Source: Parvularculaceae bacterium (GTDB lineage Bacteria > Pseudomonadota > Alphaproteobacteria > Caulobacterales > Parvularculaceae). From it: DNA of 64,000 nt. The position numbers and the translations under genes are program-made. The number at the start of each line of letters is the position of its first letter. Position 1 is the stretch's first letter. Below the pieces are notes generated by a model, which saw nothing but the letters and a program-made list of their open reading frames with translations, was not told the origin of the DNA and did no database searches. The DNA is taken from NCBI GenBank assembly GCA_028284065.1, contig JANQSJ010000007.1:62001-126000 (forward strand). The letters are read 5' to 3'. This document shows positions 19,449-27,686 of this stretch, piece by piece.

Positions 19449-22400
19449 TCACGCGTCCTCTGCAATGTCGATCAAAATGTCGAGAATACGGCGGCAGCCT
19501 TTCAGGCGCGCGCGTTCGTCGGGCCAGTTCTGCTGAAAGACGAGCTTCTGGTCGGGCCGTAGCTTCAGCTCATAGGCCGACTGGCTGATATAGGCGACAA
19601 GGCCCGCCGGATTGGCGAACTCGTTCTTGCGAAAAGCGACCAAAGCGCCTTTCGGCCCTGCGTCGATTTTCTCAACGCCCGCGCTCCGGCAGCGCTCCCG
19701 GATGTCGACGATCTGCAGAAGATGATCCACTTCCGTCGGCGCCGGCCCGAACCGGTCCACAAGCTCCGCGGCGAAGGCGTCGATATCCGCCTGCTCGCGC
19801 AGATCCCCGAGGCGGTGGTAGAGCGCCATGCGGACGCTTAAATCCTCCACATAGCTTTCTGGAATGAGCACCGACGCGCCGATATTGATCTGCGGCGACC
19901 ATTGTCCGTCGTCCGCCTCGGCGCCGTCCTTCGCCTGGGCGACCGCTTCCTCCAGCATGTGCTGATAGAGTTCGACGCCCACTTCCTTGACCTGGCCGGA
20001 TTGTTCTTCGCCCAGAAGATTGCCGGCGCCGCGGATGTCGAGGTCGTGACTGGCCAGCGTAAAGCCGGCGCCCAGCGTATCGAGGGACTGCATGACCTTT
20101 AGGCGCCGCTCCGCGCCTTCGGTCATCGGAACCCGTGGGCTTGTCGTGAGATACGCATAGGCGCGCAGCTTCGAGCGCCCCACCCGGCCGCGAAGCTGAT
20201 ACAGTTGCGCAAGGCCGAAATTATCCGCCCGATGAACGATCATCGTATTGGCGGTCGGAATATCGAGGCCGCTTTCGATGATGGTCGTGGAGACAAGCAC
20301 GTCGAACTTGCCGTCATAGAAGGCGTTCATGATGTCTTCGAGCTCGCCGCCCGGCAGCTGGCCGTGCGCGATCTTGAACTTCACTTCAGGGACGCTGTCG
20401 GTCAGGAATTCCGCAATGCCGGCGAGGTCGGCGATCCGCGGCGCAACGTAGAAACTCTGTCCGCCGCGATAGTGCTCACGGAGCAGCGTCTCGCGCGCCA
20501 CCACCGGGTCGAACGGTCCGACGGTGGTGCGCACCGCGAGGCGGTCGATTGGCGGCGTTGAGATAAGCGACAGGTCGCGAATGCCGCTCATGGCGAGTTG
20601 CAGGGTCCGCGGAATAGGCGTCGCCGTCAGCGTCAGCACGTGCGTGTCGGCGCGGTACTCCTTCAGGCGTTCCTTGTGCTTCACGCCGAAGCGCTGTTCT
20701 TCATCGACGATGATAAGGCCGAGGTCGCGGAACTTTATCGATTTCGCCAGCAGCGCGTGCGTGCCGATGACGATGTCGACGCCGCCCTCCGTCAGGCCGG
20801 CGCGCGTCGCCGACGCATCCGATGCCGAGACCAGCCGCGACAGCGGCCGGACATTCAGCGGAAAGCCCTTGAACCGCTCTTCGAAATTCTTGAAGTGCTG
20901 TCGCGCCAGCAGCGTCGTCGGCGCGATGAGCGCCACCTGCCGCCCGGTCATGGCGACAATGAATGCGGCGCGGAGCGCCACTTCTGTTTTGCCGAAGCCG
21001 ACATCGCCGCACACGAGCCGATCCATCGGCCGCCCTTTGCTGAGATCCTCGATGACGTCGGCGATGGCGTTCTCCTGGTCCTCGGTCTCCGTATACGGAA
21101 AGCGGGCGCAGAATTCGTCATAGGTTCCGGTTTGCGGCGCGATGGCGCCGGTTTCCTTCAGCGCCCGCTTGGCGGCGATCGCAATTAGCTGCTCGGCGAG
21201 CATGCGGACGCGTTCGCGCATCTTCGCCTTGCGCCCCTGCCAGGCCGCGCCGCCGAGCCTGTCGAGCGGCGTAGACGGATCGTCCGCCCCGAACCGCGAC
21301 AGGAGATCGATGTTCTCCACCGGGAGGAACAGCTTGTCGCCGCCATGGTATTCAAGCTGCAGGCAGTCATGCGGCGCGCCTTGAACGTCGAGCGCCTTAA
21401 GACCCAGATACCGCCCGACGCCATGGTCAACGTGAACGATGAGATCGCCCACATCGAGGCTCGATGCTTCGGTGAGGAAGTTCTCCGCACGCTTCTTGCG
21501 GCCTCGCCGGACGAGGCGGTCGCCGAGAATATCCTGCTCGGAAATGAACGCGGCGTCGGCGGTCTCAAATCCTCTGTCGAGGCCGAGGACGATGACCGCG
21601 GCGCGGGCGTCGGCGCCTTCAGCGTCCCGCCAGGACTCGAAGACCTTAAGGTTCTTCAGTCCGTGATCGGACAGGACCGACGCCATGCGATCCGCCGATC
21701 CCGCAGACCAGCACGAAATGAACGTCTTCTTGCCGGCATCCTCCAGATCGCCGATGTGATCGATCACCGCATCGAAGACATTGACGCCGTCGGCGGCCCG
21801 TTCCGCAGCGAAGGCGCGCCCGACCTTCGCGCCGAACGAAAACGCGCGACGCCCTTCCGGCGCGGCGAAAGGCGTTATTTGCCGCGTGACGCGTCCGCCC
21901 AGCGTCTCGGACCACCCCTCTTCATTGAAATAGAGCAATTCCGGCGGCAGCGGCCGATAGGCGGGCGCGCTGAATTCGCCGACTTTTTTCGGATCGTGCG
22001 CCTCCAGTTCATCCGCTCGCGCCGCGTAATAGTCGGCAATGGTGGCGAAGCGCGCCGCGGCCGCATCGTCGCTTTGATGGGCGCGAAAGATGAGCGCGCC
22101 TGGCGCTAGGAAATCGAACAGGGTCGCCGAGCCGCCATAGAAAAGCGGCAGCCAGTGCTCCATCCCGGCGTACTTGCGCCCGGCGCTCACCGCTTCATAG
22201 ACGGGATCGTCTGCGGCCACGCCGAAGAGCTCCCGAAAGCCGCGGCGAAACTGCGCGATCGTCTGGTCGGTCAACAGGACTTCCGTCGCGGCGCCAAGAT
22301 CGACGCGGTCTAGCTGTCGCGTCGTCGTCTGTTTCTCGGGGTCAAACGCGCGCACCGATTCCAGCGTATCGCCAAAAAAGTCGAGCCGAAGGGGCTCCTC

Positions 22401-22961
22401 CGCTCCCGGAGGAAAGATGTCGATAAGCCCGCCGCGGATGGCGAACTCGCCGGGCTCGCGCACCGTGCTCGCGCGCGCATAGCCGTTCGCCGCGAGATAG
22501 GCGGAGATCTTGTCCATCTCCACCTGCGCGCCCGGCCGCGCGGAGAACGCCGCCGCGGCGACGACGTCCTTTGGCGGCGTCCGCTGGGTCGCCGCGTTCA
22601 CTGTCGTCGTCAGGATCAGCGGCGAGCGGTCGTCTTCGGCGCGGCCCGCAAGCCAGGAAAGCGCCGCCATCCGCGCCGAGGACACCGAGGCCGTTGGCGA
22701 TGCGCGGTCATAGGGCAGGCAGTCCCAGGCGGGATAGTCGAGGACCGGAACCTCAGGCGCGAAAAAGCCGAGCGCCGCGGCGGCCGCAGTCGCCTCGCCC
22801 GCGTCCCTTGCGAGGTAGACGATGACCCCGCCCCTCGCCCGTGCGGCCTCCGCCACGCAGAGCGCCGCCGCGCCGTCCGGCGCGTCATGGACGGGAAACG
22901 ATCCGTCAGAGGCCCATGCGTCGCCCGCGGCCATGGTCGCAACGCCCGAAACGGTCGCCAT
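19449..22961 (-). CDS. mfd: Transcription-repair coupling factor Mfd
   Basis: This 1170-residue ATP-dependent translocase removes stalled RNA polymerase and recruits UvrA. Domains in order are a UvrB-like N-terminal module (about 1-330), the RNA-polymerase interacting domain (about 490-560, with DLIVHVDHGVGRYLGL), the RecG-like helicase with Walker A GDVGFGKTE and DEEQ box VDEEQRFGVKHKE, then helicase motif VI (QLRGRVGRS) and the C-terminal TRCF domain. Length is normal. It lies downstream of sdhE on the same strand; the alphaproteobacterial order recG / sdhE-mfd is here opened up by an inserted gene. Confidence 0.98.
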   Translation of the reverse strand: MATVSGVATMAAGDAWASDGSFPVHDAPDGAAALCVAEAARARGGVIVYLARDAGEATAAAAALGFFAPEVPVLDYPAWDCLPYDRASPTASVSSARMAALSWLAGRAEDDRSPLILTTTVNAATQRTPPKDVVAAAAFSARPGAQVEMDKISAYLAANGYARASTVREPGEFAIRGGLIDIFPPGAEEPLRLDFFGDTLESVRAFDPEKQTTTRQLDRVDLGAATEVLLTDQTIAQFRRGFRELFGVAADDPVYEAVSAGRKYAGMEHWLPLFYGGSATLFDFLAPGALIFRAHQSDDAAAARFATIADYYAARADELEAHDPKKVGEFSAPAYRPLPPELLYFNEEGWSETLGGRVTRQITPFAAPEGRRAFSFGAKVGRAFAAERAADGVNVFDAVIDHIGDLEDAGKKTFISCWSAGSADRMASVLSDHGLKNLKVFESWRDAEGADARAAVIVLGLDRGFETADAAFISEQDILGDRLVRRGRKKRAENFLTEASSLDVGDLIVHVDHGVGRYLGLKALDVQGAPHDCLQLEYHGGDKLFLPVENIDLLSRFGADDPSTPLDRLGGAAWQGRKAKMRERVRMLAEQLIAIAAKRALKETGAIAPQTGTYDEFCARFPYTETEDQENAIADVIEDLSKGRPMDRLVCGDVGFGKTEVALRAAFIVAMTGRQVALIAPTTLLARQHFKNFEERFKGFPLNVRPLSRLVSASDASATRAGLTEGGVDIVIGTHALLAKSIKFRDLGLIIVDEEQRFGVKHKERLKEYRADTHVLTLTATPIPRTLQLAMSGIRDLSLISTPPIDRLAVRTTVGPFDPVVARETLLREHYRGGQSFYVAPRIADLAGIAEFLTDSVPEVKFKIAHGQLPGGELEDIMNAFYDGKFDVLVSTTIIESGLDIPTANTMIVHRADNFGLAQLYQLRGRVGRSKLRAYAYLTTSPRVPMTEGAERRLKVMQSLDTLGAGFTLASHDLDIRGAGNLLGEEQSGQVKEVGVELYQHMLEEAVAQAKDGAEADDGQWSPQINIGASVLIPESYVEDLSVRMALYHRLGDLREQADIDAFAAELVDRFGPAPTEVDHLLQIVDIRERCRSAGVEKIDAGPKGALVAFRKNEFANPAGLVAYISQSAYELKLRPDQKLVFQQNWPDERARLKGCRRILDILIDIAEDA

Positions 22962-23224: not shown

Positions 23225-23515
23225 CTATTCGCCTTTCTGGCGCGGTTTGGTGATCGCCGAGACGTCGAACGCCTTCAGGCGTTCGAACACGGGCCCTGCG
23301 ATGTTGGCCGGCGCGTCGGCCTTGCCCGTCACCCAGGCGTAGACGTCGTGGTCGGACAGCGTCAGCAGGGCCTCGAATTCGTCAAGCTCCGCCGCGTTCA
23401 TGGTCGCCACATGCGCCGCCGCAAAGCCGCCGAACAGAAAGTCGGCTTCCCGAAAGCCGCGATAACGGGCGCGATAGAGAATCTTCTTGCGGCGGTCGTC
23501 GAGAACGTCGGTCAT
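23225..23515 (-). CDS. sdhE: Succinate dehydrogenase assembly factor SdhE
   Basis: This 96-residue protein promotes covalent FAD attachment to SdhA. The family motif RGxxE is present as RGFRE in ILYRARYRGFREADFLFGGF, and the C-terminal FEALLTLSDHDVYAWVTGKADAP matches the Sdh5/YgfY pattern. It is normally next to mfd and recG in alphaproteobacteria. Here mfd is downstream (263 bp away), while recG is separated by the CHAT gene. Confidence 0.93.
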   Translation of the reverse strand: MTDVLDDRRKKILYRARYRGFREADFLFGGFAAAHVATMNAAELDEFEALLTLSDHDVYAWVTGKADAPANIAGPVFERLKAFDVSAITKPRQKGE

Positions 23516-23749
23516 GGAATAAGAGGTACGCCGACTGCGCGGCCGAATCCAGCAGACCGAACGCCGCGCCCCCAGCCCGTTCTTCAGGCCAAGCGGCCTA
23601 TTGCCGATTGAGTATCCGCTAAGCGCCCAAAAGCAGACATTGGGTCTCGGCGCCTTCGCAACGAAGCCAACGCCTTAGTCAACCGGGCTTTGATTGTGCG
23701 ACTTCCGGCGCCTGGTTAGGTCGCTGGGCTTAAGAGACCAGATCAGCAT

Positions 23750-25306
23750 TCATCGCTTCGCGGGAGTTCCATATACTGAGAATCCAGCCCAGAAAGCTGG
23801 TGCGGCTTTTCCACCGGTATTCATTCTGTAATCCCTGATGACTTGGCGCAGCGCGTCTTCAGCATTATTGATATTACCATCAAGATAATCTGACGAAAAG
23901 CGTGACATAAGCAAATAGGTCGCGCGATCATTAACATCCCAGAGACTCATTACGGTTTGATCCGCGCCGGCCACGCTCCAGGCCGTCGGCAGCCCGAGAA
24001 CGGTGCCGCCCATGACCGCCCCTAATCCAGTCTGGCAAGCGCTTAGAACAACAAGCGCGCTATTCAAAAAGGGGCCATGCTCCTTTACCATCTTGAATAT
24101 GTCTTTGTCCGCCAAGACTGCTCCACCGTAAAGCCGCAAATAGTTTTCACCCCATTGCGCGGGAGAGGATTGTCCGTGGCCGGTAAAAAAGAAAATGCGC
24201 TTTCCAAATAGCGCATCGACAGTGCTCCATCTGGTGGCTTCCTGGCCGGTCAACGCCGTTACGGCGATGGACTTCCTAGTGAGGGCGTCAATATGCGCTT
24301 CGCCTTCATCTTCAGCATATGTGAGATCCCCCGTAGGATTGATGACGACCAGCGCGCCTGAGTCAGCAAACTTGCTCTTGGCTCTTCTCCTTTCTTCTCC
24401 AATCAAGCTATAGAAATCGTTCGTAACGATCACGCTTGCGTAATCCACAAGATAAGCTTCTTTGGACAAAGGCAGACTTGAAAACGAGACGTTTCCAACG
24501 TCCACGGCGGGCAACACGACGAGACGATTAATCGATCGATCAATCAGTTTTGCGCGAAATCGCATTGGCAATAGAGCCTGCGAAATCTCCAAGATAGTAT
24601 TTCTGTTTGAATCGCCAGAAGATTTTAGCCAAATGTCATTCTCAATTGCGCTTTTCACGCAATCATCAATCGCCTGTGTAGTGCTGTTTGGATTATTCTC
24701 GGGCTGGCAGTTCTGTATTATTTCTCGAACATTGGATCTTGAGACCGCTGATACAGCTAACGCCTCTCTTTGCCGAATCGACAACGGCCGGTCGGAAGAC
24801 ATCATAGCTTTCTGATTCGGCATGATTAATTCGTCTGGGGTAATCATCCAGGAGCAGAAACTTAGATGGCCTGGCGAAATCTCGTAGTCATAGACAAGGA
24901 CGGCTGTTCTCCCCGTAGAATCCAGGTTCGTTACATACTTTCTGATTGTCGATGCGTGATCCTCGGTCTCTTGGCCTTTAATTTCACGAAGATCACCGGA
25001 ACCAACTTCGAAGCGACCTGAGGAAGCGTAATTTTCCATGGCGATGTGATTGAAATACGCTTTGATTATTGCCGCCTGCAGGCCTCTTTCGCTTTGCTCG
25101 CACGTCCGCAACTCGGTCCGGCTACTCGGCGCGATCTCAGGATACAGCGTAAAATGGTCTCTATTGATTACAGGATATTGGTCGAAGCCACTTCCATGAG
25201 CGACGCCGCTGAATATCGAAAATAGAATCAAAAAAACCCTGGAAAACGTAATCAGAATTTTGCTTGCAACCGACACAACGAATAGTCTGTACACTTGAAA
25301 ATACAT
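23750..25306 (-). CDS. Secreted CHAT-domain caspase-like protease
   Basis: This 518-residue protein starts with a long hydrophobic signal sequence or anchor (residues 7-38, cleavage likely near AHG). A unique region of roughly 220 residues follows, then a CHAT domain at about 270-515. The catalytic dyad is visible as His377 in FFFTGHGQS and Cys424 in LVVLSACQTGLGA, and the typical end FWAGFSVYG is present. CHAT proteases usually carry TPR repeats; none are seen. The gene is markedly AT-rich compared with its flanks and interrupts the usual recG-sdhE neighbourhood, which indicates horizontal gain. Its substrate is unknown; no adjacent gene is an obvious partner. Confidence 0.85.
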   Translation of the reverse strand: MYFQVYRLFVVSVASKILITFSRVFLILFSIFSGVAHGSGFDQYPVINRDHFTLYPEIAPSSRTELRTCEQSERGLQAAIIKAYFNHIAMENYASSGRFEVGSGDLREIKGQETEDHASTIRKYVTNLDSTGRTAVLVYDYEISPGHLSFCSWMITPDELIMPNQKAMMSSDRPLSIRQREALAVSAVSRSNVREIIQNCQPENNPNSTTQAIDDCVKSAIENDIWLKSSGDSNRNTILEISQALLPMRFRAKLIDRSINRLVVLPAVDVGNVSFSSLPLSKEAYLVDYASVIVTNDFYSLIGEERRRAKSKFADSGALVVINPTGDLTYAEDEGEAHIDALTRKSIAVTALTGQEATRWSTVDALFGKRIFFFTGHGQSSPAQWGENYLRLYGGAVLADKDIFKMVKEHGPFLNSALVVLSACQTGLGAVMGGTVLGLPTAWSVAGADQTVMSLWDVNDRATYLLMSRFSSDYLDGNINNAEDALRQVIRDYRMNTGGKAAPAFWAGFSVYGTPAKR

Positions 25307-25604
25307 AAACAGTACGACCTTAAAGCAATCATAAGGATGAAAGAATCTCTGTAGAAAGAGTTTGCGCCAAGCATGCAGCGACGTGAGACTAACTCGACAT
25401 ACTCGGGATGCAAGTCAGAGTTTGCGGCTGATTTCGCGATTGAGCGGCAATTCGAGCGGCGTTTTCCGATATCCATTAGGGGGCCATCCTAGGCGTCTTG
25501 CGAATTCACGGCGCCGGACGCGTGAGCCGTCATCCTTTCGCGCCGCCCGCCTGTGGAGAGAGCGTTTTGGCGGCCGGCTGCGTCTCGGCGTAGAAACGTC
25601 GCCT

Positions 25605-27686
25605 ATGAGGCCATCCATCCTGCATCCCCTGTTCGCGGACGTCGTCACCCTGCCGGGCGTCGGGCCGAAGATCGCCGCCCTGATGGCGAAGGCGGCGGGA
25701 CCGCGCATCGTCGATCTGCTGCTGACGCCGCCGACGGGCCTCATCGATCGCTCGCAGCGCCCGACCGCAGCCGAGGCCGAGCCCGGCGCGCGCGTCACCA
25801 TGCGGCTGAAGGTCGATTCGCACGACCCCTCGCCCGCGAAGCGGCGCCCCTACAAGGTGCTCTGCTCGGACCCGACCGGCTTCGTCACCCTCGTCTTTTT
25901 CCACGCCCGAAGAGACTACCTCGAGAAAGTCCTGCCCGTCGGCGAGGAGCGCCTCATCAGCGGCCTGCTGGAGGATTATGGCGGGGCAAAGCAGATCGCC
26001 CATCCGGACCATATCGTCGATCCTGCGCATGCGGACGAGCTGCCGCTTTTCGAACCCGTCTACCCGCTGACCGCGGGCCTGCATCAATCGACAATGACAA
26101 AGGCGATGGGCGCAGCCTTGTCCCACGCGCCCGACCTGCCGGAGTGGCAGGAAACGACATGGCTCGCGGCGCAGCGCTGGACGGGCTGGCGGGAGGCGCT
26201 GCGGACGCTGCACCGGCCAGACGGACCGGGCGCGACGGCGCCCTCCTCGCCCGCCCGCCAGCGCCTCGCCTTTGACGAACTGCTGGCCAACCAGTTGACT
26301 CTCGCGCTCGTGCGCGCCGCCCGCCGCAAGGCGCCCGGCCGCATCCTGAAAGGCGACGGAGAGCTTCGCCGCAAAGCGGCGGCGAACCTGCCCTTCAAGC
26401 TTACCGACGCGCAGCGCGTGACGCTGAAGGAAATCAACGCGGATATGGCGTCTCCGGAGCGTATGGTGCGCCTCGTGCAGGGCGACGTCGGCTCCGGCAA
26501 GACGCTCGTTGCGTTCTTCGCCATGGTCGCCGCTGTGGAATCGGGCGCGCAGGCCGCGCTAATGGCGCCGACGGAGATTCTCGCGCATCAGCACATGAAG
26601 TCGCTCGCGCCCCTCGCCGACGCCGTTGGCGTCACGATTGAAGCGCTGACGGGCTCCGACAAGGCCGAAGCGCGCGCCGCGAAGCGGAACGGCGTCGCGA
26701 GAGGATATGTGAACATCGTCATCGGCACCCATGCGCTGTTTCAGGAGGGCGTTGAGTTTCATGATCTCGGCCTCGTCGTCGTCGACGAACAGCACCGCTT
26801 CGGCGTGCGCCAGCGCCTTGCGCTCGCCGACAAGGGCCCGCAACCCGACACGCTTGTCATGACCGCGACGCCGATACCCCGCACCCTCGCCCTCACCGCC
26901 TATGGCGACATGGACGTCAGCGCCATCCGGGAGAAACCGCCGGGCCGCAAGCCCGTCACCACACGGACGATACCGCTCGAGCGCCTGGATGAAGTGATCG
27001 CCGCCGTCGCGCGCGCCATGGACAAGGGCGAGCAGGTCTACTGGGTTTGCCCGCTGGTGGAGGAATCCGACGTTGTCGCCCTCACCGCCGCCGAGACGCG
27101 TTACGAGGAGCTGCGCGCGCGCTTCGGCGACGCCGTCGGCATCGTCCATGGCAAGATGACGAGCGCCGCCAAGGACGCCGCCATGCGCGCGTTCTACGAG
27201 GGCGCGCTGAAGCTCCTGATTGCGACCACGGTTATCGAGGTTGGCGTCGACGCGCCAAACGCCACCGCAATCGTCGTAGAGCATGCGGAGCGATTTGGCC
27301 TCGCGCAATTGCACCAGCTGCGGGGCCGCGTCGGGCGCGGCGACAAGCCGGGGGCGTGTCTTCTCCTCTACAAGAGTCCCCTCGGCGAAACGGCGAAGGC
27401 GCGGCTCTCCATCCTGCGCGAGAGCGAAGACGGGTTTCGCCTCGCCGAAGAAGACTTGCGGCTGCGGGGCGCGGGCGATCTTCTGGGCTCGGCGCAATCC
27501 GGCATGCCGCGCTTTCGCGTCGCCGATGTCTCGGTTCATGGCGAGCTTCTGAAGGCGGCGCGCGACGACGCGGAACTCATCGTGCGGAGCGATCCGAAGC
27601 TAAAATCCGAGCGCGGCCGCGCCTTGCTTACGCTCCTCCACCTCTTCGAGCGCAGCGAAGCGACGAAATTGCTTTCGGCGGGGTGA
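25605..27686 (+). CDS. recG: ATP-dependent DNA helicase RecG
   Basis: This 693-residue branch-migration helicase rescues stalled replication forks. It has the N-terminal wedge domain beginning LFADVVTLPGVGPKIAALM, Walker A GDVGSGKTLVAF, the DEQH box VVDEQHRFGVRQR, TATPIPRTL, and the C-terminal LHQLRGRVGRGDKPG motif VI. The start at 25605 (MRPSILHPLF) begins the conserved protein; the frame is open upstream but the leading 81 residues are not RecG-like. It is divergent from the CHAT gene, with a 298-bp AT-rich gap in which I see no gene. Confidence 0.97.
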   Translation: MRPSILHPLFADVVTLPGVGPKIAALMAKAAGPRIVDLLLTPPTGLIDRSQRPTAAEAEPGARVTMRLKVDSHDPSPAKRRPYKVLCSDPTGFVTLVFFHARRDYLEKVLPVGEERLISGLLEDYGGAKQIAHPDHIVDPAHADELPLFEPVYPLTAGLHQSTMTKAMGAALSHAPDLPEWQETTWLAAQRWTGWREALRTLHRPDGPGATAPSSPARQRLAFDELLANQLTLALVRAARRKAPGRILKGDGELRRKAAANLPFKLTDAQRVTLKEINADMASPERMVRLVQGDVGSGKTLVAFFAMVAAVESGAQAALMAPTEILAHQHMKSLAPLADAVGVTIEALTGSDKAEARAAKRNGVARGYVNIVIGTHALFQEGVEFHDLGLVVVDEQHRFGVRQRLALADKGPQPDTLVMTATPIPRTLALTAYGDMDVSAIREKPPGRKPVTTRTIPLERLDEVIAAVARAMDKGEQVYWVCPLVEESDVVALTAAETRYEELRARFGDAVGIVHGKMTSAAKDAAMRAFYEGALKLLIATTVIEVGVDAPNATAIVVEHAERFGLAQLHQLRGRVGRGDKPGACLLLYKSPLGETAKARLSILRESEDGFRLAEEDLRLRGAGDLLGSAQSGMPRFRVADVSVHGELLKAARDDAELIVRSDPKLKSERGRALLTLLHLFERSEATKLLSAG

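What the first reader, a model, noticed from the sequence alone, without database searches (positions are those of the whole stretch)
23750..25306. Secreted stand-alone CHAT protease inserted between recG and sdhE
The gene encodes a signal peptide, a region with no known domain and a CHAT domain with an intact His377/Cys424 dyad. CHAT proteases normally act in the cytoplasm with TPR repeats or in defence systems with gasdermin or Csx29 partners; an exported, repeat-less form with no partner is unusual. The AT-rich composition and the break in a conserved recG-sdhE-mfd neighbourhood show it was acquired.
Basis: partly seen in the sequence, partly recalled or inferred. Interest (0 to 1): 0.7.

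Follow-up and report, generated by a model that had tools for sequence, protein, structure and literature searches.

The report
Exported stand-alone CHAT protease gene
A bacterium has picked up, between two housekeeping genes, a foreign gene for a caspase-like (CHAT) protease that is predicted to be exported to the cell envelope; it belongs to a small, patchy group of short exported CHAT proteins whose job is unknown, while exported CHAT proteins in general turn out to be common.

Summary
Window 23750-25306(-) is an intact 518-residue gene with a CHAT domain (E 1e-31), His377 and Cys424 in place, a signal-peptide-like N-terminus, no repeats, foreign composition (GC3 0.52 against 0.80-0.84) and no recognisable partner. 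It splits the divergent recG-sdhE pair: the gap is 62-123 bp in 14 relatives, including a same-genus genome, and 2089 bp here. No other genome of its family that I searched has a CHAT gene.

Exported CHAT proteins are not unusual: at least 16 of 20 long CHAT proteins sampled from the same order, and most Bacteroidota hits, also carry signal peptides or lipoboxes. About half of the "no known domain" region is the N-terminal element of the CHAT module itself. Six other short, repeat-less relatives (Alphaproteobacteria and Bacteroidota) are all predicted exported, three of them as lipoproteins. They form one clade with this gene (support 100/97). Two N-terminal cysteines are shared by three members and both absent from four, as a disulfide would predict.

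Most likely it is an accessory periplasmic cysteine protease of an undescribed short exported CHAT subfamily, perhaps for envelope conflict or stress. Substrate and trigger are unknown.

The parts
23750..25306 (-). CHAT gene, 518 aa, intact
25193..25306 (-). residues 1-38, signal peptide or N-terminal anchor (predicted; hydrophobic 24-36, A36-H-G38 site)
   Evidence: all six short relatives also have a signal peptide or lipobox
24953..25186 (-). residues 41-118, subfamily-specific N-terminal segment without a known domain
24587..24952 (-). residues ~119-240, N-terminal element of the CHAT module (strand pair 'TAVLVYDY...CSWMI'), shared with TPR-CHATs
23768..24586 (-). residues 241-513, CHAT domain PF12770
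24176..24178 (-). His377 codon of the catalytic dyad
   Evidence: sequence; invariant
24035..24037 (-). Cys424 codon of the catalytic dyad
   Evidence: sequence; invariant
25100..25102 (-). Cys69, putative disulfide partner of Cys151
24854..24856 (-). Cys151, putative disulfide partner of Cys69
25328..25355 (-). promoter-like site TCTACA-16-TATGAT just upstream of the CHAT start (not above chance for the region)
25318..25321 (-). AAGG, possible ribosome-binding site, 11 nt before the ATG
   Evidence: sequence
23516..25604 (.). 2089-bp interval between sdhE and recG (GC 0.51) against 62-123 bp in 14 relatives: inserted region
23225..23515 (-). sdhE (PF03937), flank
25605..27686 (+). recG, flank; the ATG at 25605 matches the relatives' starts
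19449..22961 (-). mfd, flank

Best explanation
An accessory gene, acquired by horizontal transfer into the recG-sdhE intergenic region, encodes a CHAT cysteine protease (clan CD fold, His377/Cys424) that is exported and works on the periplasmic side, as a soluble or N-terminally anchored protein. It belongs to a small subfamily of short, repeat-less exported CHAT proteins. In TPR-CHATs the repeats hold the sensor or substrate; here that role would have to fall to the short, fast-evolving N-terminal segment, braced in three members by a disulfide. I infer that the protein is kept latent and, on an envelope event (stress, a rival's attack or phage entry), cleaves an envelope or incoming protein. 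Shown: the domain, the dyad residues, foreign composition, the empty site, the clade, export signals in all seven members. Inferred: protease activity, the disulfide, the periplasmic site, the conflict or stress role.
For: CHAT domain and dyad. Fold match to separase, Csx29 and gingipain (modest model, pLDDT 56). Export signals in all seven members, three of them lipoboxes. Cys69/Cys151 shared by three members and both absent from four; the two Bacteroidota members share another Cys pair. The seven form one clade, 100/97. Patchy distribution: 3 of 346 genomes of the order have the full-length short form. Foreign composition and empty site. One relative (G081) lies beside mobile-element primase genes. 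In Novosphingobium the gene overlaps by 4 bp a gene with a SLATT domain, a domain of predicted conflict systems, beside a TIR-TPR gene.
Against: No partner or conflict gene lies next to the window's copy, and no neighbour is shared among the seven. SLATT proteins of that kind occur in family members that lack CHAT, so the Novosphingobium pairing is a single case. PADLOC has no match for the window protein. No activity data. The window protein is the most divergent of the seven (end branch 2.01) and has lost the LPGA motif upstream of the His.
Confidence: 0.5

Rival explanations
1. Envelope signalling: the CHAT fold serves as an extracytoplasmic sensor or binding module, as in the transmembrane anti-sigma factor DdvA, and proteolysis is secondary or absent.
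For: The best sequence match of the subfamily profile among solved structures is DdvA (8rot/8rw5, E 5.5e-6); it is also found by fold.
Against: No anti-sigma domain or sigma-factor gene is next to it; the dyad is strictly kept in all seven members.
Confidence: 0.2
2. It is released as an effector against competitors or another organism.
For: Signal peptide; accessory, foreign gene; caspase-like fold.
Against: Three of seven members are predicted lipoproteins, so the subfamily is tethered to the envelope; no secretion apparatus or immunity gene adjoins; no outer-membrane export signal was seen.
Confidence: 0.1
3. Housekeeping-type envelope protein processing or quality control, carried as an optional gene.
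For: No defence neighbours in most members; one relative lies next to gshA and another next to an Era-like GTPase gene.
Against: Very patchy distribution and foreign composition; absent from all 36 sampled family members.
Confidence: 0.15
4. Recently acquired cargo without present function, on its way to decay.
For: Divergent sequence, degenerate LPGA motif, composition not yet ameliorated.
Against: 554 open codons; all catalytic and structural invariants kept.
Confidence: 0.05

Closest known systems
TPR-CHAT / Csx29 (type III-E Craspase)
   Same: CHAT fold, His/Cys dyad
   Different: no TPR, no Cas7-11 or Csx30 nearby, signal peptide present
Exported TPR-CHAT proteins of this order and of Bacteroidota (uncharacterised)
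   Same: signal peptide or lipobox followed by a C-terminal CHAT module
   Different: they are longer (about 600 to over 1000 aa), mostly with helical repeats; this one has ~80 specific residues instead
DdvA, transmembrane anti-sigma factor with a CHAT domain (PDB 8rot, 8rw5)
   Same: membrane or envelope protein with a CHAT fold; nearest solved relative of the subfamily profile
   Different: 991 aa, anti-sigma function; none of that architecture here
SAVED-CHAT and CHAT-gasdermin defence proteases
   Same: stand-alone CHAT effector logic
   Different: no SAVED domain, no recognised gasdermin or cyclase neighbour, exported
Six short exported CHATs (G081, G267, G491, Novosphingobium RL4, two Bacteroidota MAGs)
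   Same: length 439-507, signal peptide or lipobox, no repeats, one clade
   Different: CHAT identity to the window protein only 25-35%, N-terminus 14-22%; different neighbours

Membership tests
CHAT domain proteins (PF12770) | match above the Pfam gathering score | tested here: met
   110 bits against cut-off 24
CHAT domain proteins (PF12770) | His/Cys catalytic dyad | tested here: met
   His377, Cys424 invariant
CHAT domain proteins (PF12770) | proteolytic activity | not testable with these tools
   needs an assay
Short exported CHAT subfamily (defined here) | monophyly with the other short repeat-less members | tested here: met
   7-row clade 100/97 among 93 CHAT cores; the window branch is long
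Short exported CHAT subfamily (defined here) | signal peptide or lipobox | tested here: met
   by simple rules only, no SignalP
Short exported CHAT subfamily (defined here) | homologous N-terminus | tested here: inconclusive
   leave-one-out profile ranks four of seven first; window rank 20, behind other CHAT proteins
TPR-CHAT / Csx29 | TPR repeats | tested here: not met
   no TPR match at E<=1
TPR-CHAT / Csx29 | NCBIfam Csx29 model | tested here: not met
   no NCBIfam match at E<=1
Known anti-phage CHAT systems | PADLOC model match | tested here: not met
   none at E<=1
CHAT-gasdermin pair | adjacent gasdermin gene | tested here: not met
   neighbours are sdhE, mfd, recG, TetR, CAAX protease
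DdvA-type anti-sigma factor | cytoplasmic anti-sigma domain plus central transmembrane helix | tested here: not met
   the only hydrophobic segment is at the very N-terminus

The most novel reading that the evidence does not exclude
The short exported CHATs are a previously undescribed family of envelope-located caspase-like proteases that carry out or gate a response to attack from the periplasmic side, working without repeats and in at least one case (Novosphingobium) with a SLATT membrane protein: a periplasmic counterpart of cytoplasmic CHAT defence proteases.
Probability: 0.2. Interest if true: 0.75.

Novelty: new variant of a known kind. Interest (0 to 1): 0.4.

Why it matters
Experimental work on bacterial CHAT proteases that I found is nearly all on cytoplasmic defence complexes. 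The sequences show that many CHAT proteins are exported, and that a minimal ~450-residue exported form exists in two phyla. That gives a small, tractable protein for asking what caspase-like proteases do in the bacterial envelope.

Tried and rejected
Viral and phage collections: no relative. Rfam: nothing. Mobile-element ends: no convincing terminal or target-site repeats around 23450-25700. Single-sequence PDB search: only chance influenza haemagglutinin hits. AlphaFold2 with the sequences allowed gave mean pLDDT 56, N-terminal region unreliable, so no claim is made about the fold of residues 34-232. SLATT pairing as a general rule was rejected: G003, G011 and G016 carry homologues of that protein without CHAT, and in G491 the two genes are far apart. 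Literature searches on exported CHAT proteins found no dedicated study; the library holds open-licence papers only.

Full report
What is there. The minus-strand ORF 23750-25306 encodes 518 residues. Pfam CHAT covers residues 241-513 at E 1.4e-31, and the related separase model PF03568 is the only other match. The catalytic residues are His377 in TGHG and Cys424 in LSACQTG; both are invariant in the relatives. There is no TPR. The first 38 residues look like a signal peptide with a long n-region, or an N-terminal anchor: basic residues 7, 16 and 23, hydrophobic 24-36, A-H-G at 36-38. No other segment is hydrophobic enough for a membrane helix. Six of 48 window genes pass the same crude filter. 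It is the only CHAT gene in the 3.7-Mb genome.

How it got there. In 14 relatives of the same family or order, including a genome of the same genus (G001), recG and sdhE are divergent neighbours 62-123 bp apart. Here the interval is 2089 bp (distances worked out). The gene has GC 0.49 and GC3 0.52, against GC3 0.80-0.84 in its neighbours. None of 36 sampled family members has a relative, and a profile search of 346 genomes of the order found none in the family either. Two other family members carry different inserts at the same spot: G011 has 1394 bp at GC 0.51 with a sulfotransferase gene, G003 has 721 bp. So the junction takes up foreign DNA repeatedly. No end repeats or target duplication were found, and the intergenic sequence does not visibly align with that of G001, so exact borders are not known.

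What it belongs to. Six other short, repeat-less CHAT proteins were found: G081 and G267 (same order, other families), G491 (same class), Novosphingobium sp. RL4, and two Bacteroidota MAGs. All carry export signals: lipoboxes in G081 (VSSC), G267 (LAAC) and Novosphingobium (LSGC), signal peptides in the rest. In a maximum-likelihood tree of 93 CHAT cores the seven form one clade (100/97), although the window row has a long branch. Cys69 and Cys151 of the window protein have counterparts in G081 and G267, while the other four lack both. The two Bacteroidota members share a different pair. All-or-none cysteine pairs are what a disulfide in an oxidising compartment would leave.

Correcting the premise. 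Exported CHAT proteins are common. Of 20 long CHAT proteins fetched from the same order, at least 16 have a signal peptide or lipobox; one was truncated, one was not resolved and two had none. Most Bacteroidota hits also have one. These counts rest on hydropathy and motif rules read by eye, not on SignalP. Among solved structures the subfamily profile matches best DdvA, described in its PDB title as a transmembrane anti-sigma factor, ahead of the Csx29 proteins. The fold search returns separases, Csx29, DdvA, gingipain and SAVED-CHAT. PMC11854122 notes CHAT proteins, one of them apparently transmembrane, beside type VI effector genes in Bacteroides fragilis.

The N-terminal region. Residues ~119-240 hold the strand pair 'TAVLVYDY...CSWMI' that also stands directly before the Pfam CHAT core in TPR-CHATs. 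In leave-one-out tests, the top decoys picked by profiles of this region among 1644 ORFs are CHAT proteins. Only residues ~41-118 are specific to the short subfamily, and even there the window protein is too divergent for a firm match.

How it may work. The best-supported reading is an exported cysteine protease that acts at the periplasmic face. Its patchy, foreign character and the mobile-element setting of the G081 copy (D5-type primase genes) point to an accessory, conflict-like or stress role. In Novosphingobium the gene overlaps by 4 bp a gene whose product carries a SLATT domain above the NCBIfam cut-off, with a TIR-TPR gene next door; from general knowledge SLATT proteins are predicted membrane effectors of conflict systems. 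This pairing is not general. Substrate, trigger and activity are unknown.

Verdict. Observation confirmed; interpretation partly supported. A real, acquired, intact gene of a small exported CHAT subfamily, which I could not find described; its being exported is not in itself unusual.

Noticed in passing
L035:3583-4976 (G011) and L034:3583-4303 (G003): The recG-sdhE junction holds other foreign inserts in two family members (a sulfotransferase gene at GC 0.51 in G011; 721 bp without a clear gene in G003), so it looks like a recurrent insertion site.
   Followed up: partly
L097:1291-9711 (Novosphingobium sp. RL4 plasmid): TIR-TPR gene, a 662-aa gene with a SLATT domain overlapping by 4 bp an exported CHAT lipoprotein, then a Tle1-like phospholipase gene: a possible undescribed conflict locus.
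   Followed up: partly
L165-L184 and L008-L025: Most long TPR-CHAT proteins in this order and in Bacteroidota carry signal peptides or lipoboxes; exported CHAT proteins seem widespread and unstudied.
   Followed up: partly
L100:2568-10073 (G081): Short CHAT lipoprotein gene downstream of D5-like and Toprim primase genes, probably an integrated mobile element.
   Followed up: partly
G000:C14:133749-134030 (L188): The window's genome has a 664-aa open frame with a weak SLATT match (29.8 bits, under the cut-off), far from the CHAT gene.
   Followed up: no
L098:310-6191 (Gemmatirosa plasmid): Two CHAT genes in tandem, each ~1000 aa with a signal peptide, closely related to each other.
   Followed up: no
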